Part shown: positions 5,151 to 21,350 of the stretch, piece by piece
How positions within the stretch are numbered: the stretch's first letter is position 1
How the letters are laid out: every line of letters begins with the position of its first letter
Source: Elusimicrobia bacterium RIFOXYA2_FULL_50_26
GTDB lineage: Bacteria > Elusimicrobiota > Endomicrobiia > Endomicrobiales > XYA2-FULL-47-53
Direction of reading: 5' to 3'
DNA: 42,591 bases
NCBI GenBank assembly: GCA_001800355.1
Contig: MGVF01000038.1
Location: 1 to 42,591 of the forward strand
The notes under the pieces: generated by a model
Told to the model about the DNA's origin: nothing
Databases searched by the model: none
What the model saw: the letters and a program-made list of their open reading frames with translations, nothing else
Position numbers and translations under genes: made by a program

Positions 5151-5173
5151 TCCCGGATTCGATATTGCATAGC

Positions 5174-5210: not shown

Positions 5211-5216
5211 ATAGCA

Positions 5217-5245
5217 TTGACAACAATAAATTTATCTGCTATATA
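5217..5245 (+). promoter_or_regulatory. Sigma70-like promoter
   Basis: TTGACA (5217-5222), 17-bp spacer, TATATA (5240-5245), upstream of the 11-gene cluster. Confidence 0.5.
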
Positions 5246-5272
5246 TAGTATACCTTTACGAAAGCATAACCA

Positions 5273-5405
5273 GTGTCTTTTTAGCGTTTAGAAGTTGTCG
5301 TCGTCATTGCGAGCCCAAAGGGCGCGGCAATCTCGCCTTTCATCAGGAGCAACGTCTAGATTGCTTCGCTGCGTTCTCAATGACCTCAAACTGCTAAATA
5401 GACAC
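5273..5405 (+). mobile_element. MITE-like palindromic element, family A copy 1
   Basis: Terminal inverted repeats GTGTCTTTTTAGCGTTT / AAACTGCTAAATAGACAC; internal TCATTGCGAGCCCAAAGGGCGCGGCAATCTCG palindrome; flanked by CATAACCA / CATGACCA (7/8 TSD). Confidence 0.75.
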
Positions 5406-5563
5406 CATGACCACATAATGAAACATAAGCTCCGTTCATTTATCCCAATCAGATGCAGTTCCGTAAATCGGAGGCGGGCTGAAATACAGGGATAAAGCGA
5501 TGGGGTTTTTCTTTTCGTTCGCCGACGTTCGTTGTATAAATTTCCAGGGAGAAAATAACTGCG

Positions 5564-8500
5564 ATGTCAGAGAAAAAACCTAAAGAACAGATAATCTTCA
5601 ACGACCAGTACCTGGTTATCAAAAAAATAGGCCAGGGCGGTTTCGGCATTGTATGGGAAGCGTTCGATTTTAGCCTGAAGAATTTCGTGGTAATCAAGGA
5701 GTTGCTTGAAGATTTTGCCGAAACCAGATTTATAGAGATGTTTTACAAGGAAGCGCTGATCGCAAAGAACCTGATTCACGACAATATCGTGCGCGTCCAG
5801 CATTTCTGGAAGGGTGATAACGGGTCGTACTATATCGTAATGGATTACGTAGTGGGGCGCGACCTGGGACACCTGCTTAAAAAATGCGCCGAAAAACAAA
5901 TGAAATTGCCGTGGGAGCTGTCGGTTTTCATATGCGGTTCCATGCTAAAAGCGCTTGATTACGCCAATCGCCTTGCCAAGGACGTTACAACAGGCAAGCC
6001 CTACGGCATAGTTTACAGGGATGCTTCGCCCGGCAACGTAATGATATTTTTTGACGGCAACGTGAAGCTGAGCGATTTCGGCATTGCAAAGACAGCCGAG
6101 GAACTGGGACGCAAGAGCAAGCAACGTATAATAACCGGCAAGTATGCCTACATGTCGCCGGAACAGATTCACGGCGATTCCGACATTGATCACCGTTCGG
6201 ATATATATTCGGTCGGCATCGTGCTTTATGAGATGCTTTCCAATTTGCAGCTCTACAAGGGAACTTCGGACGCCATACACAAGCAGGTTACGGAAGGAAA
6301 AATAGATCTAAAGCCGCTTGAGGACATGCAGGTGCCGCATGAACTTATAGAGATCGCGCTTAAAGCCTTGGAAAAGGACAGGGAGAAACGTTACCAGACG
6401 GCCCTTGAAATGTTCCGCGATCTGCGCAGGCTGCTTAAATTCAAGGAAACAGAAGAGCTTTCCGCGGAACTTGCGGCATTTACAAGCAAGGTAATGGCCG
6501 AAGAGCTGGAAGGCGAAGATACGTTGCTTGACTGGGTACGCCAGATAAATCTTCAGGATGTCAAAAGCGATAAGGATGTAAAAAGGATTTACTGCAGGGA
6601 TTTTATCATGGGCGATCAGTCCGCCCCGGAACAACCGGCGCAGCCGCCGGTTACTTCTGGCGATGCGGAAGCGCCTAAGGATACTGTGTCGCTTGAGGTA
6701 AAGAGCAGTGATCCCGCTCCGGCGGCGCCGCCGGTAAAGGTACGTGTTCCCGAGCGGAAAAAAGCGCCGGCCCCGGCAGCGGTAGCGGAGCATAAGGTGG
6801 AAGAGCGCGGCAAAACGGTATTCGAAGAAGTAGGCGACTGGCTGGCAAAAAAGTTCAAGGTTTACAAAAAGCGGATGTTGCGCATTTCTATAGCTGTTGC
6901 GATTGCCGCCGTATTGTTTATGGCCGCCGATACGTTCATGCAGATTACGCCGCTGGGTAAAAATATTTACGCGCACCTTTACCCGCCCGACGTCGTTATA
7001 ACAACCGTGCCGGGTGGCGCCCGTGTTTCGTTGCAGACACGGGATGGCAAGTATATATTGTCAAATGCGGATTCCGTTTACCCTGTAGAATTAAGAAAGG
7101 TCATACCGCAAAGTTATGTGCTTACAGCTGAAAAGGAAGGCTATAAGCCTTTCGAGCGTGTCATAAAGATAGAAGAAAAAGGCGCCGGTTCCAAAACCGC
7201 GCAGCGCATAAATATTGTTTTTGAATTTGTTCTTAATATCAATTCAGATCCTTCCGGCGCGGATGTGTTTATTGACGGCAATAAGTTCGGCGTTACTCCA
7301 TGGAAAGGAGATTTAGTCGCGGGTGAACACACGGTAAAACTCATGTTGTCCGGTTATGAGAATCTCGGTTCAGAGGCAAAGGAATCTCACGAGGGCCAGT
7401 GCAGCCTTGATTTCACCCGTGCCACGGATAGTGAAATATTTTCAGGCATTGATAAAGTTTACTGGAAGTACGACATAACAAGCGAAAGCGGTGTCAAAAC
7501 ATTTAATCTTGCCGGCGCGCTTTTTAAACGTTACAACATCACTTCCTCGCCCAACGGGGCGTCGGTGTACGTAAATGACGAGCCGCAGCGGCGCGCCATG
7601 ACTCCCGCCGTAATTCCATTTAAAAACGGGGAATATTCGCTGCGCCTTACCGACGCTAACGGGAGATACGAAGAAACGAGAAGAACGCTGAAGGTTGACA
7701 AGGAATCCGACAACAAGGTTTTTGTCGTAATGAATCGGTGGCTTAAGGTAAAAGTCGGCATAAAGGATGAGCCTGGAAAGCCTGTCGGCGCCACGGTCAA
7801 GATAACCGGAACAGGCAATTCGTTTTCGGCCGAGAAGAAAATAACCAGTGATAAACCGGTGAGGTTTGCGTTGCCGCGGGGCAAATTCAAAATAGTTTTC
7901 GATGCGGGCAAGGAATATAAATTATTGACTTTTAAGAACTTTGAAATCGGCGAAACCGGCGAACTTGCCGGCCACATGGAATACAGCGATACAACGTTAA
8001 AAGTTATAGTGAAGGAAACGGCCACGCAAAAGCCTATAGGCGATGCCTACCTGTGGATGCGCGGTCAGATAGCAGGCAAAACAGACAGCAGCGGCTTCTG
8101 GGAAAATACTGTAATTTGTGGTACCGGGACCATACGCATAGTTGCCAAGGGTTACGCCGAGAAGACTCTTGATTATAATGTTATACCGGGCGCAAAGGAA
8201 GATAACTCACTTCTTGTTTCCCTTGATCCGGAACTCCCGGCGGCTTTGCCCAGGCCGTCATCGCCTGTGTCGTCAGGAAACGCTAATAATAAGCGCGATG
8301 AGGTTGTGGTGCCCGGTCGTGCCGGCGGCTCGATCAGATACATTGAAAACCCTGTAACGAATAAGCCCGTGATAAGCGATACTAACCCGGACAGGAGCCG
8401 CGTTGTAATTATCTGTCCGAATTGTAAAAAAGAATACCCTGCAGGTTCCAGGAAACTACGGTTTTGCATTAATTGCGGCAAACCTCTTAAATGGGAATGA
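5564..8500 (+). CDS. Transmembrane Ser/Thr protein kinase with extracytoplasmic PEGA-type repeats and C-terminal Cys4 zinc ribbon
   Basis: GQGGFGIVWEA (P-loop), VVIKELL (Lys), GIVYRDASPGNVMI (catalytic loop), LSDFGIAK (DFG), YMSPEQ; TM 'MLRISIAVAIAAVLFMAA'; PEGA-like 'VVITTVPGGARVSLQTRDG' and 'LNINSDPSGADVFIDGNKFGVTPWKGDLVAGEHTVKL'; 'CPNCKKEY...RFCINCGKPL'. Confidence 0.93.
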   Translation: MSEKKPKEQIIFNDQYLVIKKIGQGGFGIVWEAFDFSLKNFVVIKELLEDFAETRFIEMFYKEALIAKNLIHDNIVRVQHFWKGDNGSYYIVMDYVVGRDLGHLLKKCAEKQMKLPWELSVFICGSMLKALDYANRLAKDVTTGKPYGIVYRDASPGNVMIFFDGNVKLSDFGIAKTAEELGRKSKQRIITGKYAYMSPEQIHGDSDIDHRSDIYSVGIVLYEMLSNLQLYKGTSDAIHKQVTEGKIDLKPLEDMQVPHELIEIALKALEKDREKRYQTALEMFRDLRRLLKFKETEELSAELAAFTSKVMAEELEGEDTLLDWVRQINLQDVKSDKDVKRIYCRDFIMGDQSAPEQPAQPPVTSGDAEAPKDTVSLEVKSSDPAPAAPPVKVRVPERKKAPAPAAVAEHKVEERGKTVFEEVGDWLAKKFKVYKKRMLRISIAVAIAAVLFMAADTFMQITPLGKNIYAHLYPPDVVITTVPGGARVSLQTRDGKYILSNADSVYPVELRKVIPQSYVLTAEKEGYKPFERVIKIEEKGAGSKTAQRINIVFEFVLNINSDPSGADVFIDGNKFGVTPWKGDLVAGEHTVKLMLSGYENLGSEAKESHEGQCSLDFTRATDSEIFSGIDKVYWKYDITSESGVKTFNLAGALFKRYNITSSPNGASVYVNDEPQRRAMTPAVIPFKNGEYSLRLTDANGRYEETRRTLKVDKESDNKVFVVMNRWLKVKVGIKDEPGKPVGATVKITGTGNSFSAEKKITSDKPVRFALPRGKFKIVFDAGKEYKLLTFKNFEIGETGELAGHMEYSDTTLKVIVKETATQKPIGDAYLWMRGQIAGKTDSSGFWENTVICGTGTIRIVAKGYAEKTLDYNVIPGAKEDNSLLVSLDPELPAALPRPSSPVSSGNANNKRDEVVVPGRAGGSIRYIENPVTNKPVISDTNPDRSRVVIICPNCKKEYPAGSRKLRFCINCGKPLKWE

Positions 8501-8533
8501 TGCCGGTATTTTTCCAAGAAAAGGAACGTTCCT

Positions 8534-9739
8534 GTGAAAATGAACTCCATGGAAAATCTCTCAAAAATAGCAACGCTCCTGATAACCGTGATCATGATTC
8601 TAGTCCATGCTCAACAGTTACCCGCCGCATTTTCAAACACAATAACCTTCCAGGGTAAACTTACCGACGACTCAGGCAACGCCTTAAGCGGTAATTACGA
8701 TTTCACTTTCAAGATTTATTCCATTGTTACGGAAGGAACTTTGCTCTGGGAAGAGGATCACGATTCAATCGTGGTTGCAAACGGGCTTTATTCCGTGCTG
8801 CTGGGTGAGAATACGCCCCTGGGACTTGATTTTAACGCGGATTACTGGCTTGAAATAAATGTAAGTCCCGCGGGCGAAAATTCATTTGAAAGGTTATTGC
8901 CAAGGCACCGTTTGGCGATGGCTCCCTACTCCGCCAACTCAGCCCGGCTTGGCGGCCTGGGTTCGGACAGTTTTGTTAATTCCACAAATCCCTACTGGCT
9001 TGTTCTTACCACCGGCGGCGTTACCTCGCTTCATACCCACGATGCCGGTTCCGTAATAAATCATCTTGACAGCGGCGAATACTACAATGATGTAAAAGTA
9101 TCCAGCGCAATCTGTTCAGACAGGCTTTCCGGGTTCGCTTACAGCCATTTTGTTACCACTTCCACGACACAGGTAATAAACGGGGCCAAGACGTTTACAG
9201 GCAATATGAACGCGGCCGAAAATTTGAACATTGGCGGGCCGGGATACTCGGTTAATTTTTCCAGCAACGTTTCGGTAGGTGATTTGTTGCAAGCCGAGAC
9301 GGCAACTATAAACGAATTAAGCGTTAATTCCCTCAAAAAAGCGCCGGGCGTGGTTGTCCTTCTGTACTGTGATGAAACACAGGGTGTGGACGTCAATGAT
9401 ACAACATCCGAGACAAACAGCAAGGCGTACCTGCTTGCGGCCAATAACTATTCAAGGATTATAGTTGAAAGTGAAGTTTACACGTATAATCTGCGTAACG
9501 CCAATGATATTCCTGAAATAACAGTGTCGCTTCTGATTGGTTTTAATGAGAAGACTTTCACGTTTCGCAATATAGGCACAACCGATACGAACTCCGGGAG
9601 TAAGGTCAATAGTACGCTGAAATTCAGCGCAGTACAAAATAATGCGGCATGGATAGTGGTAAGCATTGACCCGGATACGGCGGATAACGATATCGGGGGG
9701 CGGGCATTAAGCTTAAGGGTGTACGGCGTATTACCCTGA
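8534..9739 (+). CDS. Secreted surface protein, 'QGKLTD' N-terminal domain family (paralog of next gene)
   Basis: N-terminal signal-like segment; 'ITFQGKLTDDSGNALSGNYDFTFKIY...NGLYSVLLG...YWLEINVSPAGENSFERLLPRHRLAMAPYSANSA'. Confidence 0.75.
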   Translation: MKMNSMENLSKIATLLITVIMILVHAQQLPAAFSNTITFQGKLTDDSGNALSGNYDFTFKIYSIVTEGTLLWEEDHDSIVVANGLYSVLLGENTPLGLDFNADYWLEINVSPAGENSFERLLPRHRLAMAPYSANSARLGGLGSDSFVNSTNPYWLVLTTGGVTSLHTHDAGSVINHLDSGEYYNDVKVSSAICSDRLSGFAYSHFVTTSTTQVINGAKTFTGNMNAAENLNIGGPGYSVNFSSNVSVGDLLQAETATINELSVNSLKKAPGVVVLLYCDETQGVDVNDTTSETNSKAYLLAANNYSRIIVESEVYTYNLRNANDIPEITVSLLIGFNEKTFTFRNIGTTDTNSGSKVNSTLKFSAVQNNAAWIVVSIDPDTADNDIGGRALSLRVYGVLP

Positions 9740-9759
9740 TTTTTAGAGGATTCAATAAA

Positions 9760-10380
9760 ATGCGATTTATAAATAGTGGTTTTTTTGTTTTGTTTTTGAT
9801 CCTGTCGGTGTTAACGGCAGATATTTCAGGCGCGTTGCCCGGTGTTATCAGTTTCCAGGGGAAACTGACCGATGCCGACAATAACAGTGTCAACGGTTCA
9901 TATGATTTTAAATTCACATTGTACGATAATGCCACGTCAGATTCCGAAGTGTATAAGATCTGGACCGAGACGCAGTATGGAATAGCCGTTTCAAACGGGT
10001 TGTACAGCGTCGAGTTAGGCAGAGCCAACCCGGAACTTTCGGCAATAACATTCAACGCGCCTTACTGGCTCCAGGTAGAGGTTTCACCTGCCGGTTTGGG
10101 AAGTTACGAAACGTTTTCCCCGCGTCACCGGCTTACCGAGGCTCCCTACGCATTTAGAAGCGAATACGCCAACAATCTTGCTGCTTCAAGCGTCGTTATA
10201 AGCACTATAACCGCATCCAGCATTTCCGTTTCCAATACTTTTAAAATGCCCGTAGTAACCAATTTGCCGGCAACTCCGTCTTCCATAGGCATGTTATATT
10301 ACAGGACGTCAGACAACACTGTACACGTTTCAACTGGTACTGCGTTTAATGCCTGGCGGCAGCTTAACTGGCAGCCGTAA
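9760..10380 (+). CDS. Secreted surface protein, 'QGKLTD' N-terminal domain family (short paralog)
   Basis: Signal peptide 'GFFVLFLILSVLTADISGALP'; 'ISFQGKLTDADNNSVNGSYDFKFTLYD...NGLYSVELG...PYWLQVEVSPAGLGSYETFSPRHRLTEAPYAFRS'. Confidence 0.75.
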   Translation: MRFINSGFFVLFLILSVLTADISGALPGVISFQGKLTDADNNSVNGSYDFKFTLYDNATSDSEVYKIWTETQYGIAVSNGLYSVELGRANPELSAITFNAPYWLQVEVSPAGLGSYETFSPRHRLTEAPYAFRSEYANNLAASSVVISTITASSISVSNTFKMPVVTNLPATPSSIGMLYYRTSDNTVHVSTGTAFNAWRQLNWQP

Positions 10381-10386
10381 TATAAA

Positions 10387-11613
10387 ATGAATTTATTAAA
10401 AAAGTGCGTATTATTTTTCCTTCTTACGGTCGCCGTCCCCGATGGTTGGGCGAACCTGTCCACGGGTACGAGTGTTTCTTCTTTTGATGTTTACAGTTGC
10501 GGGTTTAGCACAGCGTCTTCATCTTCTTACAGAAACTTCGGATTGGTCGGCCAGGCCGCCTGCGGAGCTTCCGCGAGTGCGAGTTATAAGAATTACGCGG
10601 GTTTTGTCCCTGCTTTCGTGCTTATACTGGACGTGGTTATATCGTTCATTGACGAGTCGCCCTCTTCCGGCGAATGGCAGCAAACCACCAATGTAACCTG
10701 CCATATAACGGTGGAGACATTAGAGGGTAATCCCGTTTCAGGAGTAAAATACCGCATTGCAAGCGAAGGCGCGGACGAAGCCGTATTTTCACCGTGGCGG
10801 AGCGATGCCGTTATCGAAACAACCTACAGCGGCAGCGAGGTGCGCTTCCAGGCGGCAATTCCAGGCGCGGCGCTGGACTCGTTTGCCGAGGGACAGGACA
10901 ATTTTATACAATGGCGCGCAAAAAATTCCGGCGGCGTGGAAGCGTTTTCCGGTAAATATCGCGTGCGCGTCATGGCAAACGATGCTCCTGAAATTGCCAT
11001 ACTGCAACCCGATGAGAAAAGCGGCGTCGCTTCCGACAGGCTTTTTGTTGAGGCGCAGTTGACGGATGCATGCTGGGGCATAGACGAGAATTCCGTTGAG
11101 CTTAAGCTGGATGATGCCAATAACTCTAATATCGCTCTTGTTACATCAGCCGCAAACCCGGGAATATATTCGGCGCCTTCCGGTAAGGTTTCCTATACTT
11201 ATGCCGGTGCGCCTCTTGCGCCGGGGGCTACTTATAAACTGACCGTTTCGGCAACTGACAAAAACGGCAAAAATAGCTCTTCGGTTCTTTCGTTTAAGTT
11301 GTTAGGGGGGGCGATCCCGGATATTGTGCCTTACCCTTCGCCGTTTGATCCAAAGAAGGAGAGCGTGGCCATACGTTATGTGTTGCGCAAGGATTCAGGA
11401 GTAAGCATTAACGTATACGATATGTCGGGCCGGCTTGTTAAAGAGGTCATTGATAACGAACCACGGAAGGCTGGAACGTGTGAGGATACGTGGACGGGAC
11501 GGAATTATGCCGGCGAAGGCCTGGCAAACGGCGTTTATTTCTGCGAGGTCGTGGCAACGGATGATGAAGGAGAACACCGCCGCTATTCTTCGCTGGCTAT
11601 TTTCGGAAAATAA
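10387..11613 (+). CDS. Secreted protein with C-terminal FlgD Ig-like domain
   Basis: Signal peptide; C-terminus 'PYPSPFDPKKESVAIRYVLRKDSGVSINVYDMSGRLVKEVIDNEPRKAGTCEDTWTGRNYAGEGLANGVYFCEVVA'. Confidence 0.8.
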   Translation: MNLLKKCVLFFLLTVAVPDGWANLSTGTSVSSFDVYSCGFSTASSSSYRNFGLVGQAACGASASASYKNYAGFVPAFVLILDVVISFIDESPSSGEWQQTTNVTCHITVETLEGNPVSGVKYRIASEGADEAVFSPWRSDAVIETTYSGSEVRFQAAIPGAALDSFAEGQDNFIQWRAKNSGGVEAFSGKYRVRVMANDAPEIAILQPDEKSGVASDRLFVEAQLTDACWGIDENSVELKLDDANNSNIALVTSAANPGIYSAPSGKVSYTYAGAPLAPGATYKLTVSATDKNGKNSSSVLSFKLLGGAIPDIVPYPSPFDPKKESVAIRYVLRKDSGVSINVYDMSGRLVKEVIDNEPRKAGTCEDTWTGRNYAGEGLANGVYFCEVVATDDEGEHRRYSSLAIFGK

Positions 11614-11614
11614 C

Positions 11615-12664
11615 ATGCGCCATCTTATTATACCCGGCCTAATCAGCCTGCTTATGGTGTTGTGGTGTTGCCCTGCGTATGCCGAGGCAAACCCCGCCGC
11701 CTTTCTAAATACCGGCGTCGGTGTGCGCGCCATGGGCATGGGCGGCGCCTATACCTCGATAAGCGATGATCCATCGGCAATGTATTGGAACCCTGCCGGT
11801 GTGGCAAAAATTCAGCGGCTTGGCATAACTGTCATGGGGCAATCAATGGGCGCGGCGCGTTGGGATACGCTTTCCGATGTTACGCCGGTATACCAGTTTG
11901 TAGGTATTATTTTACCATTGCAGTCATTGAACTTTATTAATATACTTGGTGATGATAACGCGGTGGGTATCGGGTATATAAGTAATGCCCTTGGCGGGGT
12001 CCCGTATACTTTTCTGGACGATTCGGGTGTTATCGTGCGTGAAGAATTTGATGACAGGGAGTGTGCGTGGTTTTTATCGTACGGCTTTTCGCTTTTGGGT
12101 ATGGATTCGTTGTTGCTCGGCGGTACTTTAAAGTACATAACGCAGGAGTTTACGCGCATAGAAGGAGCCAGTGCCAGCGGTTATGATTTTGATGCAGGGA
12201 TGATTTATTCCCTGGACGAAGGCTTTAACGTGGGTGTTCTACTTCAGCGCGGGGCCGAGCTTCAATGGGCTAACGGCCACACGGATGCCGGGCCGTTTAC
12301 TACAAAATTAGGGGTTTCCAAAAAGTTTGTCTTACCCGAAAGCTTCTCCGTGCTTGGAAGCGCGGATATTGTCCAGCGGCAGACAACGCCCCTTTTTTCA
12401 CATTTTGGCGCGGAGCTTGGGTATGAGCAGGAGCATGGCGGGGAAATATTCAGCATGGAAGGTATTTTTCTTCGACTGGGGCTCGACGGCGTGGCGCTCG
12501 AAGACAGGTATGAATACCGTGATAAAATAAATAACAACGTCAATTTTACGGCCGGTATCGGCGTAAAGTTTTCGTACAGGAAATTCGGCATTCAACTTGA
12601 TTATGCCATGGGTTCATACCGTTTAGGAGACAAAAACAGGTTTTCGTTGAATATATATTTATAA
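11615..12664 (+). CDS. PorV/PorQ (UPF0164)-like outer-membrane beta-barrel protein
   Basis: Track start 11435 corrected to ATG 11615, which starts a signal peptide 1 bp after the upstream stop; 'AAFLNTGVGVRAMGMGGAYTSISDDPSAMYWNPAGVA' is the family N-terminal motif. Confidence 0.82.
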   Translation: MRHLIIPGLISLLMVLWCCPAYAEANPAAFLNTGVGVRAMGMGGAYTSISDDPSAMYWNPAGVAKIQRLGITVMGQSMGAARWDTLSDVTPVYQFVGIILPLQSLNFINILGDDNAVGIGYISNALGGVPYTFLDDSGVIVREEFDDRECAWFLSYGFSLLGMDSLLLGGTLKYITQEFTRIEGASASGYDFDAGMIYSLDEGFNVGVLLQRGAELQWANGHTDAGPFTTKLGVSKKFVLPESFSVLGSADIVQRQTTPLFSHFGAELGYEQEHGGEIFSMEGIFLRLGLDGVALEDRYEYRDKINNNVNFTAGIGVKFSYRKFGIQLDYAMGSYRLGDKNRFSLNIYL

Positions 12665-12676
12665 AGGATTGCAATC

Positions 12677-13666
12677 ATGAAAAAACATTGCCGTTACATT
12701 ACGCTGATCGTGAGTGTTGTGTTTTTCGCAGGGGCAGCCGCCAGGTGTTTTGCAGACAAGAAAGATGTTACCGACCCCGTGTTGAAGGAAATAATTTCAT
12801 CCTTCGGCGACCGGATGCCGAAATTTATTGACAAGCACGGTGCCGACATTTTTGTTGTTGACGGCACGGTAACGCGCGGCGCTTTAATGCAGGTGTTCTA
12901 TGAGTATGATAAATCGCTTAAAATCCCCAGGAAAGAAGCCGTTTCCAGGCAGGAATTAGACGAGATTAAAAGAAAATTGGCCATCCTGGAAAAGAATATC
13001 ATGGCGCCTCCTCCTTCGCTGGCGAAAAACGATATGATGCAATTAATAAACGAACTAATGCCGAATATGCCTGCGCTTCTGGATAACAGCCTTATGAATT
13101 CCAAGGTATTCGCCAGCCTCAGGGACCAGGTGCATTCCGCGAATTCCGCCGGAACAGCCACCTCCGCCGGCACTGTTGACACCCGCGAAATTGATGAGCT
13201 TGGCAACAGGATCGCGCTGCTTGAAAAAAAGTTGTTGAATGCGCCGGTTGCGGCTAAACACAACGCTTCATCTGATGATACCGCACGCTTACAACAGGCG
13301 GTTGCCGGCATGGACCAGAGGTTGAAAAAACTGGAGGGAAGGCCACAGGCAACGGCCAGCGGTGTTTCCGGGACGGATATAAATAAAATCATAGGGGAGT
13401 TGCGTCCGGAAATAGATGATATAGTGAACGAAAGCGTAAAGGATTCAAATGCGGATTCCAAAAGTTCCTCAAGAGAGATGCTGAAAAATATTGCAAAAAC
13501 GCGCAGCGATATCGCCAAAATCAACCGGCGGCTTGAAACGATTGAAACAAAATCCGGCGCCCAGGCCAGAAAGAACGGCGGAACAAGCTTGTCTTCGGCG
13601 GGATCTACATTGACCAAGGTAACACTGGGTCTTAGCATGGTCGCCGCGTTTTTTATCGCCCGGTAG
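12677..13666 (+). CDS. Envelope coiled-coil protein with signal peptide and C-terminal hydrophobic anchor
   Basis: N-terminal 'YITLIVSVVFFAGAAARCFA'; heptad-rich segments; C-terminal 'LTKVTLGLSMVAAFFIAR'. Confidence 0.65.
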   Translation: MKKHCRYITLIVSVVFFAGAAARCFADKKDVTDPVLKEIISSFGDRMPKFIDKHGADIFVVDGTVTRGALMQVFYEYDKSLKIPRKEAVSRQELDEIKRKLAILEKNIMAPPPSLAKNDMMQLINELMPNMPALLDNSLMNSKVFASLRDQVHSANSAGTATSAGTVDTREIDELGNRIALLEKKLLNAPVAAKHNASSDDTARLQQAVAGMDQRLKKLEGRPQATASGVSGTDINKIIGELRPEIDDIVNESVKDSNADSKSSSREMLKNIAKTRSDIAKINRRLETIETKSGAQARKNGGTSLSSAGSTLTKVTLGLSMVAAFFIAR

Positions 13667-13694
13667 AAGCGACTAACCAACAGGAGAATTTGGT

Positions 13695-15956
13695 ATGCCA
13701 AAAGTTATACTGGAGAAAAAAGCGGAAGTTATGGCCGAATTCAATTTTTCCCGGAAGAAAGCCATCACCGTGGGAAGCGGCAAGGAAAACGACATAGTAA
13801 TAAAGGACAAAAGCGTTTCCGAACACCATTGCACTATTTCATATAAAGACGGCAAATATGAGCTAAAAGATAATAATACACTTTCCGGCACGCAGGTGGA
13901 TGGGCGTTCCGTAACTATTTATGAACTTCGCATGGGAAATCGGATAACGGTCGGGGGACATTCTGTTGTATTCAGGTCTATTCAATCGCGCAGGGCAAAA
14001 GCAGTCGCCCCAAAAGAAACCGACGATGATTCATTTTCCGGTGGCCCGGGCGAGGACAAGATGCTATTTCTTCTCGGCATATACGGAAAATTTGAAGGTA
14101 AGAAATACGAGATAAAAAACGGCGAGACCTTTATAGGGAGGGAAGAAGTAACCCCCAGGGGAATACCTAACGACATCGTCCTTACTGATGATATGACTGT
14201 TTCCAAGGGACACGCCAGGATAACGCGCGCCGGTGACAAGTGCATATTGACCGATACGGGAAGCACCGGTGGCGTAGGCATAAACGGCGCAAAGGTAGGC
14301 CAGCTGAATGACGTCGAGATTAAGCCCGGCGACGAGATAGCGATAGGAAGAACTATTTTTCGTTTTACAGGCGGCGATCCCGATTATTCAGCGCCTAAGC
14401 GTTACGGTGCGGCGTTTATGAAAATCCGCAGGGTTCTAAACGCAACGGTTATTTTGGCCGTGGTGCTGTCTTCCTTATTCTACCTGTTTAAAGGTTTCAA
14501 CGGTATTTCAATCATAAATAGTTCGCCGGAGAGGATTGTTATCCGTTTCGACGAGTCATGGCAGGCAAAGGGTAACACGTCTCATCCCGCGCCGGAAGTT
14601 TATGACATAACTTCTTCTCCCGCTCTTGGCGACATAAACAAAGATGGTGTCAATGATATAGTTTTCGTCAATGCGGCCGGCCAGTTATCCGCATATAACG
14701 GCAAAACGGGTACTACCCTCTGGAGTCCGGTGGAAGTGCAGGCGCCCGGGAAGGCCTCGCCCGTGCTTGCCGACATGAATAATGACGGTGTAACGGACGT
14801 AGTCGTGCTTTCCGGGACATCCATGATTTATGTTATAGACGGCCAGGCCGGGGTAGTAATACACAAGGATATGCTTGGCGGCACGATCAGCGATATGTCG
14901 CCCGCGGTGGCGGACATAAACCTCGACGGCAGGCGCGACATCGTGGCTTGCTCCGAAGAAGGAACGGTGTATTTTATTTATTCGCCGGGTTTTGAGCTGG
15001 CTGCGGAAAAGTTACTGGAAACCGTGGAGGGCCCGGTATATGCGTCGCCGGTTATTATAGCCACAAGAAAAATTTCTCCCCTGGTCGTGATAAGTTCATA
15101 TAACAGCAAGCTGTTCTTGTTCAGCGGCAGTTCGCGCGATAAGAAAACGATAGATCTGGTGGAAAGAACAGGCAAGGCGCACCTGATACAATCTTCACCC
15201 GGGTCGGGAGACTTGAACGGGGACGGTATACCGGAATTAATCGTGCAATCGAGCATACCGCAGTATATATCGGCGGTGGACATATCCGGTTTTGAAGTGA
15301 AATGGACTTATTTTGTGGATCCTGTGCCGCCTGCCGAGTTAAAACATAATTCGACGCCGCTTGTTTTTGACATGGACCGCGATGGCGGCGGCGATGTCCT
15401 GGCGCTTTCAGGCAATGGAACTGTATACGGCTTGAAAGGTAAAACGGGTTATCCCGCGGGCGAGTTGTTGTGGAAGTATACCTTTCCTTCGGCGAACAGG
15501 ATTATCTCATCTCCTGCGCTATTTGATTTTAATAAAGATGGCATGCAGGATGCCGTGTTCGGGGGAGAGGACGGAACTATCCATATCTTTGACGGTTTCG
15601 CGGGCAAACGTGAAACCGGCAGGATACTCGCCGCCGTTAAGGCAAGCAATGCTGCAATAACCTCATCCGTCGCCCTGGGTGATGCTGATGGGGACGGCAT
15701 GATGGAGGTGGTATATGGCGATATTGCCGATTCCTTGCAAGTGCTGCGCACGAACGCGAAGGTATTTAAAGCCAGGGTATATTGGCCCATGTTCCTCGGG
15801 GACGCGGCGCATGCCAGTTCTGGCAGCCCGGATCAGGCTGGCCCGTACATTATAATGGTAATGTCTTCGCTAGTGGCGTTGATCATCCTGGCATTGGTTG
15901 AAATAATGCTGAAGAAACGGCAACTGACTAAGAGGCCGCGCGTAGTTTATATTTAA
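13695..15956 (+). CDS. Tandem FHA domains - TM - FG-GAP/VCBS-type beta-propeller - TM protein
   Basis: FHA1 'ITVGSGKENDIVIKDKSVSEHHCTI', FHA2 'ETFIGREEVTPRGIPNDIVLTDDMTVSKGHARI', TM 'ATVILAVVLSSLFYLF', repeats such as 'SPALGDINKDGVNDIVFVN' and 'SPVLADMNNDGVTDVVVLS', C-terminal TM 'YIIMVMSSLVALIILALVEIML'. Confidence 0.9.
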   Translation: MPKVILEKKAEVMAEFNFSRKKAITVGSGKENDIVIKDKSVSEHHCTISYKDGKYELKDNNTLSGTQVDGRSVTIYELRMGNRITVGGHSVVFRSIQSRRAKAVAPKETDDDSFSGGPGEDKMLFLLGIYGKFEGKKYEIKNGETFIGREEVTPRGIPNDIVLTDDMTVSKGHARITRAGDKCILTDTGSTGGVGINGAKVGQLNDVEIKPGDEIAIGRTIFRFTGGDPDYSAPKRYGAAFMKIRRVLNATVILAVVLSSLFYLFKGFNGISIINSSPERIVIRFDESWQAKGNTSHPAPEVYDITSSPALGDINKDGVNDIVFVNAAGQLSAYNGKTGTTLWSPVEVQAPGKASPVLADMNNDGVTDVVVLSGTSMIYVIDGQAGVVIHKDMLGGTISDMSPAVADINLDGRRDIVACSEEGTVYFIYSPGFELAAEKLLETVEGPVYASPVIIATRKISPLVVISSYNSKLFLFSGSSRDKKTIDLVERTGKAHLIQSSPGSGDLNGDGIPELIVQSSIPQYISAVDISGFEVKWTYFVDPVPPAELKHNSTPLVFDMDRDGGGDVLALSGNGTVYGLKGKTGYPAGELLWKYTFPSANRIISSPALFDFNKDGMQDAVFGGEDGTIHIFDGFAGKRETGRILAAVKASNAAITSSVALGDADGDGMMEVVYGDIADSLQVLRTNAKVFKARVYWPMFLGDAAHASSGSPDQAGPYIIMVMSSLVALIILALVEIMLKKRQLTKRPRVVYI

Positions 15957-15983
15957 TTTTTCAAGTTGTTCAGGAGGAGAAGT

Positions 15984-17438
15984 GTGAAGGTTACGTATTT
16001 TGCAAAAACGGACGCCGGTAAAGTGCGAAGGGAAAACCAGGACAGCTATGCAATCCTGGAATCGGAAAATCTTTTCGCGGTTTACGACGGCATGGGCGGC
16101 GGGGCGGCGGGAGATTTTGCCAGCCGGTGCGCAGCCGATATTGTAATGGCGTCTTTATGCTCCCTTAAGAAAAAGGACGTGGCGGCTGTCGCCGGTGGTG
16201 GTTCTCCGGAGATCGGAGAGGACGCACAGCGCATTATCTCGGCGGTTCGCATGGCAAACCATGTTCTTTTTAAATTTTCTGAAGCATATACGCGCCTGGC
16301 GGGCATGGGGACTACGGCTGCAATTATAAAATACGATGCTGCTAACAGTGTTATGCACATATTTCATGTCGGAGACAGCCGTGTTTATCGTCTTCGCGGT
16401 GATGCTCTTGAGCTTCTAACCAAGGATCATTCCAAGGTTACCGAGCTTGTTGAGCAGGGCAAGATGCGGGAAGATGAAATAAATATGGTCGAAATACAGA
16501 GTATGATAACACGCGCCCTGGGCATTCAGCATACTGTTAAAATAGATTATCGCATGGAGTATATGAAACCGGGAGATCTGGTTTTGCTTTGCTCCGACGG
16601 CCTTTCCAGCGAAATTGATGATGCCGCCATAAGTAGAATAATGCTGGGCAACGGCGGAGACATCAGAAAGATTACGGAGCAACTGATAAACTCGGCGAAT
16701 GCCGCGGGCGGGAAAGATAATGATACCGTCATAACTCTGAAATTCAATGCAAGCCACGCATTTTTACCTTCCAGTAAGCCAGCCGGCTCCGGTTTCGGCG
16801 CCGTAATGACCGTGTCCGGTGAAACGCCACCGCAGCTTGCGGCGGAGCGGCACCTGGCAAATAGCATTATCGAAGCAGCCAGGATAAAGATACCGGTGTC
16901 AGCCATGGAAAAGAGTATATTCACCAATCCGCTCTATCTTGGCGCGGCCATAACTTTGCTTGTGATAGGTATTGCCGGCTCAGTAGCGCATTTTTCCATT
17001 AGCAAACCGGAAAGGGAGCTTACGGATCTGACGGGTAAAATTGCGGGGCTTCGCCTGGAAGTGCGGGCGCCGTCCGCAGACCAGATAGCGTTGTTTAAAA
17101 AAGCGGACGACAGGATTCAGAAAATGCAGCTATTGCAGGATTGGCACCTTGATACCGTTAATACGACCGTGCCTGTGAAGGGCGCCGAGCTGCGCATAAT
17201 GAAAAACGGCGTGGAAAAATTCAGCGCGGTTACTGCCGGCGTTCCGATTGATGTAAATCTTGACGGTGGCAATTACATTGTGGGGATAAAATATAAAAAC
17301 CACCGCATAATAAATCATAATCTTAACTTAAAAGAAACTATTCGCGTTCCGGTTGAGAAATCAGAGAATCTTCAACCGGTTACGATACTTTTGGTGCCGG
17401 ATAACATTATGTCAGCGCCCGATACCGGCAGGGAATAA
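15984..17438 (+). CDS. PP2C-family Ser/Thr phosphatase with C-terminal TM and PEGA-like domain
   Basis: 'AKTDAGKVRRENQDSYAI', 'AVYDGMGGGAAGDFAS', 'HVGDSRVYRLRG', 'LTKDHSKV', 'LLCSDGLSSEI', 'GGKDNDTVI'; TM 'LGAAITLLVIGIAGSVAHF'. Start moved from 15966 to GTG 15984, preceded by AGGAGGAG. Confidence 0.92.
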   Translation: MKVTYFAKTDAGKVRRENQDSYAILESENLFAVYDGMGGGAAGDFASRCAADIVMASLCSLKKKDVAAVAGGGSPEIGEDAQRIISAVRMANHVLFKFSEAYTRLAGMGTTAAIIKYDAANSVMHIFHVGDSRVYRLRGDALELLTKDHSKVTELVEQGKMREDEINMVEIQSMITRALGIQHTVKIDYRMEYMKPGDLVLLCSDGLSSEIDDAAISRIMLGNGGDIRKITEQLINSANAAGGKDNDTVITLKFNASHAFLPSSKPAGSGFGAVMTVSGETPPQLAAERHLANSIIEAARIKIPVSAMEKSIFTNPLYLGAAITLLVIGIAGSVAHFSISKPERELTDLTGKIAGLRLEVRAPSADQIALFKKADDRIQKMQLLQDWHLDTVNTTVPVKGAELRIMKNGVEKFSAVTAGVPIDVNLDGGNYIVGIKYKNHRIINHNLNLKETIRVPVEKSENLQPVTILLVPDNIMSAPDTGRE

Positions 17439-17448
17439 GGAGGAGCAG

Positions 17449-18204
17449 GTGCCGGGAAAAAATAAAAAGATATTTATTGTAGAGGATAACAAGCCGTTTC
17501 TTGAAACCTTGAGCGATTTCCTTGTTTCCAAAGGATACGATGTGGAAAGTTTGGCGATCGGAAAGGGCGCTGCCGAGAAGATAAAGGCAACCGGTGCCGA
17601 CCTCGTGATGCTCGACATTGTGCTGCCGGATACGGACGGATTTCAGATATGCAGGGATATTAAAAGCGATCCGGTAACAGCGGCGGTCCCCATAATGCTC
17701 ATGACAGGTAATGAAACCATAGACATAGACAAGGGTTTTGCCCTCGGCGCAGACGAATGCATCTACAAGCCATTCAACCTGGAAGACGTTGCCTTGCGCA
17801 TTGCAAGGCTGCTGACGAGAAAGCAGAAGATATTCATCGTTGATGACGACCGCAAAATCGGTGATATGCTTACATTGATGCTTACAGAACAGAAATATGA
17901 CGTGGTTGTGTTTTACGAGGGGAAGGGCGTTGTGGAAACTGCTAAAAAGGAGCGTCCGGATCTTTTACTGCTGGACATAAATCTCGGTTTGCCGCCAGGG
18001 GGGATAGATATATGCGGGGAGTTGAAGGCTGATGCCCTGACCAGGACGATACCCATAATAATGTTTACCGCCAACGACGACGTGGAATCGGTGGAACGCA
18101 GTTTCGCATGTGGCGCCGATGATTATATATTCAAACCGTTCAAGGTGCCGGAACTGCTGCTCAAGGTAAGAAAGTACCTTACATATGTTAAGAACACGCA
18201 ATGA
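17449..18204 (+). CDS. Double receiver-domain response regulator without output domain
   Basis: Two REC domains: 'IFIVEDNKPF...LVMLDIVLPDTDG...IYKPFN' and 'IFIVDDDRKI...LLLLDINLGLPPGG...IFKPFK'. Start moved from 17353 to GTG 17449 after AAGGAGGAG. Confidence 0.9.
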   Translation: MPGKNKKIFIVEDNKPFLETLSDFLVSKGYDVESLAIGKGAAEKIKATGADLVMLDIVLPDTDGFQICRDIKSDPVTAAVPIMLMTGNETIDIDKGFALGADECIYKPFNLEDVALRIARLLTRKQKIFIVDDDRKIGDMLTLMLTEQKYDVVVFYEGKGVVETAKKERPDLLLLDINLGLPPGGIDICGELKADALTRTIPIIMFTANDDVESVERSFACGADDYIFKPFKVPELLLKVRKYLTYVKNTQ

Positions 18205-18229
18205 TACGGTTCAAGCCGGAGGATAAATA

Positions 18230-20365
18230 ATGAATTTTGGCAGGAAACTGGTGCTTAGCTCGGCTGTTATAGCTTTTATTTTAGGACACCATGCAGCGCG
18301 TCCCTGCTATGCTTCTAATGTTACGGCCGCAGATTCGCTGCGTTTTGTGCCTGACCCACAGTCTGCCGCGATGGGGGAAAGCATTGTTTCTTTTTCAGGA
18401 TCGCCGGCCGTGATGATTGTCAACCCCGCAGCCATGGTTTATATTTACCAGCCTAAACTGTGTTTAAGCGACCTTATGTTGTGGGAAGGCTTGCGGTATA
18501 ATTTTGCCGGTTTCACCGTGCCCACCGGCATGGGAACCCTGGGTTGTTCGCTGTCGTACCTTTCATACGGAAAGATTCAGGGTTATGGTTATGACGGCGC
18601 TGAATACGACTTGCCTTCCACCTACGATGTGGCGGCTACCTTTGGTTATGCGCTGCCTCTGAAAGTTGACCTGCCGTTGCGCCGGGAGTACGGCAGCGTG
18701 GGCATTAACGTAAAATTTATCGTTAACAAACTGGCAAATTATTCCACGGAAGGCGTGGCATTTGATTTCGGAGGTATTTTCAAGGTGCCGTTCGTGGACG
18801 GATTAAATGCCGCGGTTGTTTATCGTAACGCGGGAACCTCGCTTAAATATACGAAAGATGCCAATGCATTGCCGGACCAGGCGCGGTTCGGTATCCGCTA
18901 TAACAGGCCGGCTTGGCGCAATCTTGCGCTGGTGGCCGATTTTAGCCAGGATATAAACAGCGCCATGCAGGTGTTTTCGGCCGGGGCCAGCATAATGCCT
19001 TTGTACGCCATTACGTTGCGCGGCGGGTGGATCGATGCGGAGAACTCCATCACATCAGGGGTTCGCTGGGGTATCGGTATGGATTTTGATATTTTCTCTT
19101 TAAACTATGCGATGTCGTCATTTAAAGATTTTACAATGTCCCACCAGGTTGGCGTAGATATTCCGCTGGGCAGCATTGCGCAGCCCAGGGCGGCCTACGA
19201 TCGTTACCTCGACGTTTATTTTCAGCGCGCAAAGGATAAATACGATGAGCGTGATTACATAGCGGCACGCCAGCAGATAGAGGAAATACTTTCAGTTTAT
19301 CCGGGACACAAGCAGTCCATCGCCTATCTTGAAAAGATAAGCGTGCAACTTGATAAAATAGACCAGCGGAAAAACTCCAAAATAGAGAAGCTATTGCGGG
19401 AATCGGAAAATGCCGTAATGCGAAACGATATAGAATACGCCAGGAAAAGTTTTAACAGAATTTTAAGAATAGATCCCGATAATGGCGCAGCGCTTGACGG
19501 GCTAAATAAAATCGAAAAAGTTACGGGCGAGGTGCGCGAACAGGATATGAAACAGTGGAAACAGGCGCTTCAATATTTGCATCAGGGCGAATACGTCATG
19601 GCCAAGCTGAATTTCGAGCAAATATACGCGGCTGATACTTCGCGTGACGACGCAAAGCGCATGGTGTTCGAAGCCGAGCAGCGCATAATAGAGATGAGCG
19701 CGGGCGAGATAAACAGGTTTTACAAGCGCGGCACCGCATTATTTAAGAAAGGAAAGTACAGCCAGGCTGTTCCATATTTTGAGGCCGTTACTGTCGCCAA
19801 CCCCAGTTTTATTGATGGGCAAAACTACCTTCTGAAATCCCGGCAGCGTATACGGGAAATAGAGCTGGGTGTTGAGAACAGGGAAACCAACCGTAAGCGC
19901 GAGACTGCCGAAAACGAAATAGCATCGGCTTTCAGCAACGCTTTAAGGCTTTATGACGGCGGCAATAATTATGAGGCGCTGGACGCATTCATGAAATGCC
20001 AGGAGATGGCGCTGCGCCATGATTTCAAGGAATACCTGGATCGCGTCAACAATTTTATCGCAACCATCCGCGCCAACATAGCCGAGCAGTACCTGCGCGC
20101 CGGCAAGAGCCTGGTTGACAGAAACGATGTCGAGAGCGGGCTTGAGGAGTACCGCAAGGGATTGATGTATGATCCCGGCAACGCGCAGGTGAAAGCCGAG
20201 TTTGATATTATTTCACGTTTGCTGACCAAACAATATTACGAGAAGGGAGCGGCGCTCTTTAAAAGCGGCGATGCCGTCGCGGCCAGGCAGATGTTCGAAA
20301 AATCGCTTTTTTATAATCCGGATAATGAAGAGGCGCGAAATGCCCTGGGAAAAATTTCGCGCTAA
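18230..20365 (+). CDS. PorV/UPF0164-like beta-barrel fused to C-terminal TPR-type repeats
   Basis: 'DSLRFVPDPQSAAMGESIVSFSGSPAVMIVNPAAMVY' barrel N-terminus; TPR-like 'AVMRNDIEYARKSFNRILRIDPDNGAALDGL', 'GTALFKKGKYSQAVPYFEAVTVANPSFIDG', 'GAALFKSGDAVAARQMFEKSLFYNPDNEEARNAL'. Confidence 0.85.
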   Translation: MNFGRKLVLSSAVIAFILGHHAARPCYASNVTAADSLRFVPDPQSAAMGESIVSFSGSPAVMIVNPAAMVYIYQPKLCLSDLMLWEGLRYNFAGFTVPTGMGTLGCSLSYLSYGKIQGYGYDGAEYDLPSTYDVAATFGYALPLKVDLPLRREYGSVGINVKFIVNKLANYSTEGVAFDFGGIFKVPFVDGLNAAVVYRNAGTSLKYTKDANALPDQARFGIRYNRPAWRNLALVADFSQDINSAMQVFSAGASIMPLYAITLRGGWIDAENSITSGVRWGIGMDFDIFSLNYAMSSFKDFTMSHQVGVDIPLGSIAQPRAAYDRYLDVYFQRAKDKYDERDYIAARQQIEEILSVYPGHKQSIAYLEKISVQLDKIDQRKNSKIEKLLRESENAVMRNDIEYARKSFNRILRIDPDNGAALDGLNKIEKVTGEVREQDMKQWKQALQYLHQGEYVMAKLNFEQIYAADTSRDDAKRMVFEAEQRIIEMSAGEINRFYKRGTALFKKGKYSQAVPYFEAVTVANPSFIDGQNYLLKSRQRIREIELGVENRETNRKRETAENEIASAFSNALRLYDGGNNYEALDAFMKCQEMALRHDFKEYLDRVNNFIATIRANIAEQYLRAGKSLVDRNDVESGLEEYRKGLMYDPGNAQVKAEFDIISRLLTKQYYEKGAALFKSGDAVAARQMFEKSLFYNPDNEEARNALGKISR

Positions 20366-20376
20366 CGGGAGATCGT

Positions 20377-20751
20377 ATGCGTTATAAAATTATAATCGCA
20401 AGGGCGTTGACGGCTCTGGCCGTAATGGGAAACATGGGTTTTGTGTCCGCGGATATAAAGGCTTATCCCGTCCCCTGGGTGCCTGAAGCGGGCAGGGAGG
20501 GTAAGATAGTATCGGGCAATTATACCGACGGCATAACATTTGCCGGCCTTCCATCGTCGGGTGATATATATATTTATAATATCAACGGCATGCTTGTCCG
20601 CCGCGTTACGTTTAGCGATCCTGTGGGTGGGCATCTGCGGCTTTACGGCGCAAATGACAGTAACGGCGGCTACATTTCAAGCGGCGTATACATATGGAAG
20701 GTCGTCGGTGACGGAATATCAAAAACAGGCAAATTGATAGTGGTGCGGTAA
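20377..20751 (+). CDS. Small secreted stand-alone FlgD-Ig-like protein
   Basis: Signal-like N-terminus then 'YPVPWVPEAGREGKIVSGNYTDGITFAGLPSSGDIYIYNINGMLVRRVTFSDPVGGHLRLYGANDSNGGYISSGVYIWKVVGDGISKTGKLIVVR'. Confidence 0.72.
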   Translation: MRYKIIIARALTALAVMGNMGFVSADIKAYPVPWVPEAGREGKIVSGNYTDGITFAGLPSSGDIYIYNINGMLVRRVTFSDPVGGHLRLYGANDSNGGYISSGVYIWKVVGDGISKTGKLIVVR

Positions 20752-20914
20752 TTACAGCCGAAAATCTGTTGCCTTATAATCGTCCGGCTTTATGACACAG
20801 TCGTCTGGTCGGGCAATGACAAACCTCACTGTAAACCTGCTGAAAAACTCTCCCCTGTCGATTTATTTAATGTTGCTTTTTTCCCAAAATATACGTACAA
20901 TTAGTGAACAACTT

Positions 20915-21350
20915 ATGTTACGCAGCGTGTCATTGCGAGGAGCCTTGGCGACGAAGCAATCCCGTCGTTTTGATACGAAACAGCAAGATTGCTTCGCTTA
21001 CAGGCTGTGTCGCAATTACATTTTGCGTCAAAAATTCTTCTTGCCGTCATTCCGGCGAAAGTCGGAATCTAGATTTTCCGTCGAGGCTGGATGCCGGATT
21101 AACAGACTGTATCATAATTACGTTTTATAGTCAAAAGTTCCTGTTTTCGTCACTCCGGCGAAAGCCGGAGTCCAGATCTTCCGTCGAGACTGGATACCGG
21201 ATTAAGGCATTCCGGTATGACGGACGGAGCAAAATGTAATTACGACACAGCCTGTAAAGCTCTCCGGCATGACGGGTACGGCTAAAAGGCAATTATGACA
21301 CAGTCTGTTAGCTCGCAATGACGGCAACCTTGGCATTTCTTGCGTAACAT
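20915..21350. repeat. Composite nested palindromic repeat island (two repeat families)
   Basis: Outer ATGTTACGC / GCGTAACAT; then GTCATTGCGAGG / CTCGCAATGAC; then a 27-bp inverted repeat 21000-21026 vs 21229-21255 (26/27); inner direct repeats 21046-21102 and 21149-21205 (GTCAyTCCGGCGAAAGyCGGA...GGATTAA). Confidence 0.8.

What the first reader, a model, noticed from the sequence alone, without database searches (positions are those of the whole stretch)
5564..20751. Candidate new system: a threonine-phosphorylation circuit embedded in an outer-membrane/secretion gene cluster
Seen: eleven same-strand genes with gaps of at most 33 bp. Order: TM Ser/Thr kinase with PEGA repeats, two QGKLTD secreted proteins, FlgD-Ig protein, PorV/UPF0164-like barrel, coiled-coil anchor protein, double-FHA/TM/FG-GAP protein, PP2C phosphatase with TM and PEGA-like tail, double REC, PorV-like barrel + TPR, FlgD-Ig protein. 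Known: kinase/phosphatase/FHA trios (PpkA-PppA-Fha) control some type VI secretion systems, and PorV-like barrels and FlgD-like C-terminal domains occur with type IX secretion. Inference: this cluster joins a phospho-Thr switch, a receiver input, and barrel plus cargo-like proteins into one regulated envelope apparatus. No T6SS core or SprA/PorU-type T9SS core is in the window, so it is not simply one of these.
Basis: partly seen in the sequence, partly recalled or inferred. Interest (0 to 1): 0.85.

Follow-up and report, generated by a model that had tools for sequence, protein, structure and literature searches.

The report
Envelope-spanning threonine-phosphate signalling operon
In Elusimicrobiota bacteria, a conserved gene cluster links a protein kinase, its phosphatase and a phosphate-reading protein to outer-membrane barrels of the kind used in type IX secretion, and it almost never occurs without a second, separate barrel locus, so it looks like an undescribed two-locus system for sensing or controlling the cell surface.

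Summary
The window comes from an Elusimicrobiota MAG. Gene order kinase-QG-FlgD/CTD-PorV barrel-coiled coil-FHA-PP2C-REC-PorV/TPR barrel is kept at about 45% identity across several families of the order, with different flanking genes, and is vertically inherited. Kinase and PP2C catalytic residues and the second FHA pocket are invariant. One linker threonine (KIN T418, EExKGKTVFEEVGDW, beside the membrane) is invariant: the best candidate FHA ligand. Kinase, PP2C and FHA protein each have a periplasmic part; the FHA protein's is a BamB-like propeller. The last barrel is PorV-like with a TPR arm. QG, FLG and BAR1 are repeatedly missing while the core stays. An unlinked second PorV-TPR barrel locus (with mini-CTD protein and two-component genes in most families) co-occurs almost perfectly (38 of 39); the mini-CTD gene sits in the window cluster in this family. 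T6SS is excluded. The genome does encode a distant SprA, so 'no SprA' holds only for the window. Best reading: a trans-envelope pThr sensing arm attached to a T9SS-like surface system. No function was tested. New variant of a known kind.

The parts
5564..8500 (+). KIN: Ser/Thr kinase (11-292), variable linker, invariant juxtamembrane motif EExKGKTVFEEVGDW with T418, one TM (about 441-459), periplasmic PEGA repeats, C-terminal CxxC...CxxC zinc-ribbon-like tail
6803..6859 (+). Codons for KIN residues 414-432 (juxtamembrane motif with invariant T418); coordinates derived from the gene start
8534..9739 (+). QG1: secreted protein with QGKLTD N-domain, fibre/adhesin-like, strongly length-variable in relatives
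9760..10380 (+). QG2: second QGKLTD secreted protein
10387..11613 (+). FLG: secreted protein with C-terminal FlgD_ig domain of the kind found on T9SS cargo
11615..12664 (+). BAR1: PorV/PorQ-family outer-membrane barrel, signal peptide, directly downstream of the FLG CTD
12677..13666 (+). CC: signal peptide, conserved N-domain, coiled coil of very variable length, conserved hydrophobic C-terminus (LGLSMVAAFFIAR)
13695..15956 (+). FHA: FHA1 (Arg missing) + FHA2 (canonical) - TM - BamB-like propeller in the periplasm - TM - conserved basic cytosolic tail
15966..17438 (+). PP2C: Stp1-type phosphatase with all metal-binding residues, one TM, periplasmic tail (start TTG 15966 or GTG 15984)
17449..18204 (+). 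REC: two receiver domains, no output domain (one receiver in family f2)
18230..20365 (+). BTPR: PorV-fold barrel (about 40-315) followed by a long TPR arm
20377..20751 (+). mini-CTD: signal peptide + T9SS type A sorting domain only; in other families the same gene lies behind the second PorV-TPR barrel at an unlinked locus

Best explanation
The cluster encodes the phospho-threonine arm of a two-locus, envelope-spanning signalling system attached to a T9SS-like surface apparatus. Shown: the genes, conserved order, intact catalytic residues, topology by hydropathy, folds by prediction, and co-occurrence with the second locus. Inferred: (1) KIN's periplasmic PEGA region senses the state of the periplasm or outer membrane, most likely through the TPR arm of the PorV-like barrel BTPR and the CC coil. 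(2) Active KIN phosphorylates itself at T418 just inside the inner membrane. (3) FHA2 of the FHA protein docks on pT418, bringing the BamB-like propeller to KIN and the barrel's periplasmic arm and changing barrel function (surface display or export of QG/FLG-type cargo through BAR1 and SprA). (4) PP2C, also with a periplasmic tail, resets the switch. (5) REC connects this arm to a histidine kinase, for which the second locus (HK, REC-GGDEF, REC-wHTH, sigma factor, second PorV-TPR barrel and mini-CTD protein in G102) is the candidate; that locus resembles the PorA-PorY-PorX-SigP loop of Porphyromonas.
For: Order conserved in f1, f2, f4, f6 and, as an outlier, in one genome of another class; FHA and PP2C overlap by the same few bases in nearly every genome outside the window; FHA tree follows taxonomy. 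Catalytic residues invariant (KIN K45/E63/D153/N158/D171 20 of 20; PP2C D26/D41/G42/D211/D251/N252 28 of 28; FHA2 R149/S170/H173/N197 26 of 26). T418 is the only Ser/Thr conserved at 90% or more in KIN 293-440: motif conservation 0.82 against 0.33 for the linker and 0.77 for the kinase domain; no such residue in the PP2C linker. BTPR best PDB hits by E-value are chains from T9SS translocon structures, which I read as PorV (6h3i_F TM 0.65, 8gl6_F 0.62); FHA protein's best hit is BamB (TM 0.70-0.78). KIN with BTPR2 in 84 order genomes: 38 both, 1 KIN only, 2 BTPR2 only, 43 neither (Fisher p 2.5e-20; genomes of 1.2 Mb or more and 85% or more complete p 1.3e-7). Mini-CTD with KIN: 36 both, 43 neither. 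Mini-CTD lies behind BTPR2 in f2, f3, f4, f6 and f5 genomes but behind BTPR (this window) in f1. CTD directly upstream of a PorV gene in 43 of 91 cases, 0.34 expected; CTD and PorV counts rise and fall together (rho 0.98).
Against: No expression, phosphorylation or interaction data. Periplasmic contacts, pT418-FHA2 binding and the REC link are inferences. SprA association is weak once genome size is considered (p 0.035) and five cluster-bearing genomes show no SprA hit, so dependence on a T9SS-like translocon is not established. PorU-type C25 peptidase absent in 59 of 60; GldM not found, without a positive control. The cargo/shuttle part is dispensable in some genomes. Co-occurrence counts genomes, not independent losses; independence is clear only within genera g7 and g3. 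The operon is inferred from spacing only. In the window's own family the second locus lacks the histidine kinase and sigma-factor neighbours.
Confidence: 0.45

Rival explanations
1. Secretion switch: the pThr circuit directly gates export of the QG/FLG surface proteins by a T9SS-like pathway, as PpkA-PppA-Fha gates T6SS; the operon exists for its own cargo.
For: QG, FLG and BAR1 lie inside the operon in most genomes; FLG-BAR1 is a cargo/shuttle-type pair; a distant SprA is encoded in most genomes; cognate CTD-shuttle pairs are known in Flavobacterium, for type B CTDs with PorP/SprF-like shuttles (PMC12618676).
Against: QG-FLG-BAR1 is missing while the core stays in G070, G060 and a group of g3 genomes; five cluster-bearing genomes show no SprA hit; many CTD-PorV pairs in the same genomes have no pThr circuit.
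Confidence: 0.25
2. General envelope or cell-wall stress kinase of the PknB/StkP sort, with barrel and secreted-protein genes as passengers in a long operon.
For: Kinase and phosphatase are closest to PASTA-kinase and Stp1 models; in family f2 the cluster sits between scpAB and glgA-ftsX-envC-like genes; juxtamembrane phosphorylation is known for StkP (PMC12077195, title and abstract).
Against: No PASTA domains; the barrel BTPR is retained with the core, and an unlinked second barrel plus mini-CTD is co-lost with the kinase, which passengers would not predict; a separate kinase-PP2C-FHA trio with soluble PP2C and FHA already exists across the phylum.
Confidence: 0.2
3. Mainly structural: BamB-like propeller, TPR arm, coiled-coil rod and barrels form a trans-envelope scaffold or barrel-assembly accessory, with phosphorylation only tuning it.
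For: BamB fold of the propeller; TPR arm; CC architecture like the Thermotoga OmpA1 rod.
Against: BamB-like propellers are widespread and the match is fold-level only; CC shows no SLH hit in Pfam.
Confidence: 0.1

Closest known systems
PpkA-PppA-Fha threonine phosphorylation pathway of T6SS
   Same: Ser/Thr kinase, PP2C phosphatase and FHA protein encoded with envelope machinery; Fha is known to bind a pThr on an inner-membrane core protein (TssL T14; PMC3953482)
   Different: No T6SS in 84 genomes; here all three proteins have TM segments and periplasmic parts; partners are PorV-type barrels, not Tss proteins
Type IX secretion (PorV, SprA/Sov, CTD cargo) and its PorA-PorY-PorX-SigP control loop
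   Same: PorV-fold barrels, type A sorting domains, distant SprA in the genome; the second locus (G102) has HK, response regulators, sigma factor, PorV-like barrel and a small CTD protein, parallel to PorA-PorXY-SigP (PMC7712824)
   Different: No PorU-type peptidase in 59 of 60, GldM not found; control arm in the window uses Ser/Thr phosphorylation; barrels carry a TPR arm; sigma factor is RpoD/RpoS-like, not ECF; phylum outside Bacteroidota
PASTA kinase / Stp phosphatase (PknB, StkP) wall-signalling pairs
   Same: Kinase and PP2C domains match these models best; StkP has a phosphorylated juxtamembrane domain
   Different: PEGA instead of PASTA, TM phosphatase, FHA-propeller reader, outer-membrane partners
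Thermotoga OmpA1 (Omp-alpha) rod
   Same: Signal peptide, N-domain, long coiled coil, hydrophobic C-terminus (PMC3387000)
   Different: No SLH domain detected; protein length varies from 264 to 720 residues among homologues

Membership tests
T6SS threonine phosphorylation pathway | Linked to a T6SS core (TssB/C sheath) | tested here: not met
   VipB/TssC PF05943: 0 of 84 order genomes, E. coli control rings
T6SS threonine phosphorylation pathway | Kinase, PP2C and FHA encoded together with intact active sites | tested here: met
Type IX secretion system | SprA/Sov translocon | tested here: inconclusive
   Distant homologue: 166 bits, E 6.6e-49 in G037, three stretches, below the 200-bit cut-off; in own genome C110 and 56 of 60 phylum genomes; no hit in five cluster-bearing genomes
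Type IX secretion system | PorV-family barrel | tested here: met
   NF033709 over cut-off for both barrels; T9SS translocon chains best PDB match of BTPR
Type IX secretion system | CTD cargo with type A sorting domain | tested here: met
   mini-CTD over TIGR04183 cut-off; FLG FlgD_ig 56 bits but Por_Secre_tail sub-threshold
Type IX secretion system | PorU sortase (C25 peptidase) | tested here: not met
   1 of 60 genomes, not this one
Type IX secretion system | GldL/GldM motor | tested here: inconclusive
   GldM TIGR03517 0 of 31, but no control rang; GldL not tested
PorA-PorXY-SigP type control loop | Small CTD surface protein, HK, response regulator and sigma factor acting on T9SS genes | tested here: inconclusive
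   All four kinds of gene present at the second locus in family f6 (L100); HK and regulators also in G020; sigma factor not ECF; in f1 the locus lacks HK and sigma neighbours; regulation not testable
PASTA kinase | Extracytoplasmic PASTA repeats | tested here: not met
   PEGA instead; PknB_PASTA_kin model 207 against cut-off 450
Omp-alpha-type tether | SLH domain | tested here: not met
   No SLH among the listed Pfam matches of 12 members at E up to 1 (only the 25 commonest of 135 families are listed)

The most novel reading that the evidence does not exclude
A previously undescribed class of outer-membrane signalling: PorV-type barrels with TPR arms act as receptors or export gates read out in parallel by a phospho-threonine circuit (this window) and a histidine-kinase/sigma circuit (second locus), sharing a mini-CTD surface signal, in a phylum whose T9SS-like SprA/PorV/CTD pathway has not been described in the papers I could search.
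Probability: 0.3. Interest if true: 0.85.

Novelty: new variant of a known kind. Interest (0 to 1): 0.62.

Why it matters
If right, it joins two things known only apart: Ser/Thr-FHA control of secretion (T6SS) and PorV/CTD surface systems (T9SS), in a phylum with few cultured members. It gives a concrete, cheap test (does FHA2 bind pT418 of KIN?) and a gene set (KIN, FHA, PP2C, BTPR, BTPR2, mini-CTD) for asking how a signal crosses two membranes. The CTD-PorV pairing, with distant SprA homologues in most sampled genomes, also suggests a T9SS-like pathway outside Bacteroidota.

Tried and rejected
T6SS membership (VipB absent with a ringing control). CC as an SLH protein: SLH-like by eye (DGTVTRGxLxxxxYEYD) but no Pfam support, and PDB sequence hits only coiled coils. 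SprA against PDB sequences by phmmer: no hit. BAR1 against PDB sequences: nothing meaningful. Strict SprA dependence: not supported. PADLOC: only generic kinase, PP2C and receiver hits. Promoter/terminator scan: no more sites than shuffles beyond noise, so the operon boundary rests on gaps. Nucleotide-pattern genome scan for the FHA protein reached only one close relative and says nothing about absence elsewhere. Literature searches combining Elusimicrobi* with type IX secretion, SprA, FHA, PEGA or kinase found no description; the E. minutum genome paper is not held.
Full report
What is there. The window is the first 42,591 bases of contig C38 of a 2.0 Mb Elusimicrobiota MAG; its nearest named relative is Elusimicrobia bacterium RIFOXYA2_FULL_47_53. 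Between 5564 and 20751 lie eleven + strand genes with gaps of 1-33 bp, bounded by gaps of 413 and 612 bp.

Conservation. A search of 199 genomes of the phylum found full-length FHA-propeller homologues almost only in the same order, 42-60% identical in most, 38-39% in the most distant. Fetched loci show the order KIN-QG-FLG-BAR1-CC-FHA-PP2C-REC-BTPR in families f1, f6 and f2, a shorter version in f4, and the same order in one genome (G006) of another class. Flanks differ: scpAB on the left and galT, glgA, ftsX on the right in f2; a scpA-like gene on the left and galT on the right in f6; MgtE_N/Nramp on the right in f1. The FHA tree recovers f1 and f2 as single groups. In genus g3, whose genomes are mostly small, the cluster is shortened (KIN-FHA-PP2C-REC-BTPR) or broken (G118, G170, G084, G072; G064 has an interrupted FHA gene). 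QG-FLG-BAR1 is missing as a unit in G070, G060 and the G062/G031/G005/G052 group (the latter also without CC), so the core is KIN-FHA-PP2C-REC-BTPR, usually with CC.

Is it a working circuit? All catalytic residues checked in KIN and PP2C are invariant; FHA2 keeps R149, S170, H173 and N197 in 26 of 26, whereas FHA1 lacks the usual Arg (S, N or K). Hydropathy gives one TM in KIN, one in PP2C and two in FHA, so writer, eraser and reader each have a periplasmic part. The kinase linker is poorly conserved (0.33) except the segment beside the membrane, EExKGKTVFEEVGDW (0.82), where T418 is the only Ser/Thr kept at 90% or more in residues 293-440; the PP2C linker has none. This makes T418 the best candidate ligand for FHA2. 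That is inference; the precedents are Fha binding to pThr14 of TssL (PMC3953482) and phosphorylation of the StkP juxtamembrane domain (PMC12077195, title and abstract only).

Folds. The AlphaFold2 model of BTPR (mean pLDDT 83.5, pTM 0.50) gives as best PDB hits by E-value two chains of T9SS translocon structures, 8gl6_F and 6h3i_F, which I read as PorV; the TM-scores normalised to the target are 0.62 and 0.65. FadL-type barrels and TPR proteins follow. The FHA protein's model (pLDDT 82.7, pTM 0.64) has BamB as its best match, target TM 0.70-0.78 in the leading BamB entries. Both are fold-level resemblances; propellers of this kind are widespread.

The T9SS-like background. Distant SprA homologues occur in 56 of 60 sampled genomes of the phylum, below the curated cut-off but in collinear pieces of one frame of about 1,750 residues; the complete one in G037 scores 166 bits, E 6.6e-49. 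PorV_fam members number 29 in this genome and 35 in G037, FlgD_ig domains 17 and 21. Over the 14 genomes counted for both, the two numbers correlate (Spearman 0.98), and 43 of 91 CTDs lie within 1 kb upstream of a same-strand PorV gene, against 0.34 expected (the PorV list was truncated, so this is a lower bound). C25 peptidase is absent in 59 of 60; GldM was not found, but no control rang. So a T9SS-like pathway is likely, a complete T9SS is not shown. FLG-BAR1 is then an ordinary instance of a recurrent pair.

A second locus. Searching the order with BTPR showed a second, unlinked PorV-TPR barrel, BTPR2. I read presence lists for KIN, FHA, BTPR, BTPR2 and SprA off and typed them into; the assignment of BTPR against BTPR2 used position and score by eye. 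KIN and BTPR2: both in 38, KIN only in G152, BTPR2 only in G078 and G120, neither in 43 (p 2.5e-20; 1.3e-7 among the 47 larger, more complete genomes). SprA is retained in G001, G023, G080 and G100 (a fragment in G100), where both are missing, and the KIN-SprA association falls to p 0.035 in the filtered set. Fisher tests treat genomes as independent, which they are not.

I fetched BTPR2 loci from 20 genomes and, with the G000 and G037 loci, clustered all ORFs of 100 codons or more. I scanned by HMM only proteins of G102 (L100) and G020 (L107), plus the G000 locus: G102 has a HAMP histidine kinase, REC-GGDEF and REC-winged-helix regulators and a sigma-70-type factor (RpoD/RpoS-like, not ECF) upstream of BTPR2 and a mini-CTD protein downstream; G020 has the same kinase and regulators but no clustered sigma-factor ORF. 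In other genomes the same ORF clusters appear in the same places, but the regulator cluster was joined through its REC domain, so their exact domain make-up is not checked. The sigma-factor cluster was seen in 9 of the 22 loci and the mini-CTD cluster in 17. In G000 and G037 the BTPR2 locus lacks these neighbours apart from a single REC.

The mini-CTD profile search gave a clearly top-scoring class of hits (over about 117 bits; the next are at 102 or less) in 38 genomes, one each except G164, which has two such places. By comparison of coordinates it lies next to BTPR2 in those genomes where I matched both; in G124 it is on another contig. In f1 alone (this window and G037) it lies next to BTPR of the pThr cluster. 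Mini-CTD and KIN: both 36, KIN only 3, mini-CTD only 2. A gene that changes between two otherwise unlinked loci, both with a PorV-TPR barrel, is the best evidence that they belong to one system. The second locus in G102 parallels PorA-PorY-PorX-SigP of Porphyromonas (PMC7712824), where a CTD protein signals to a histidine kinase and an ECF sigma factor; the authors saw no direct PorA-PorY contact.

A third, simpler trio (CHASE2-TPR kinase, soluble PP2C, soluble double FHA) is found across the phylum, including this genome's C74; CHASE2 is assigned by eye, not by an HMM. It shows that pThr circuits are old here and that the window's version differs in having a membrane-bound phosphatase and reader and barrel partners.

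Verdict. The mechanism is a hypothesis with a sharp test. It works in some respects like the T6SS threonine phosphorylation pathway but is not a member of it (no T6SS). It uses T9SS-type parts without meeting all T9SS features tested. I rate it a new variant of a known kind, interest 0.62.

Noticed in passing
G000:C74 (L066:4532-8181); L065:5992-10075: Second trio: membrane kinase with N-terminal sensor (CHASE2-like by eye) and TPR, soluble PP2C, soluble double FHA, beside lysine/dap genes; phylum-wide. FHA linker and kinase carry EATIVM / EGTVIMEG-like Thr motifs.
   Followed up: partly
L088:7796-10436, L089:7413-10148, L097-L116: Unlinked second PorV-TPR barrel locus; in G102 with HK, REC-GGDEF, REC-wHTH, sigma factor and mini-CTD.
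   Followed up: partly
G000 and 9 other genomes: CTD gene directly upstream of a PorV-family gene in 43 of 91 cases, suggesting cargo-shuttle pairs genome-wide.
   Followed up: yes
G000:C110:8549-11554 (L084); L085:6173-11479: Distant SprA homologue in most Elusimicrobiota genomes sampled, also in families outside the order.
   Followed up: partly
G006:C83:8486-8974; G006:C55:15182-15640: Peptidase_C25 ORFs in the only sampled genome of 60 that has them; the same genome carries the pThr cluster outside the order, on a 10 kb contig.
   Followed up: no
window 5151-5563 and 20752-21363: Both flanks of the cluster hold repeat-like sequence (GTCATTGCGAG..., GTCATTCCGGCGAAAG...CCGGAATC); similar sequence seen by eye at the contig end of L093, where the cluster's assembly breaks.
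   Followed up: no
window 8414-8476 (KIN residues 951-971): CxxC...CxxC zinc-ribbon-like tail conserved on what hydropathy says is the periplasmic side, unusual for a zinc ribbon.
   Followed up: no
window 3-5150: Very long ORF (1,715 aa, open at the contig start) with an APH phosphotransferase domain.
   Followed up: no
L088:10990-15999: Large protein with Peptidase_C39 and a weak RHS-repeat match downstream of the second barrel in this genome.
   Followed up: no
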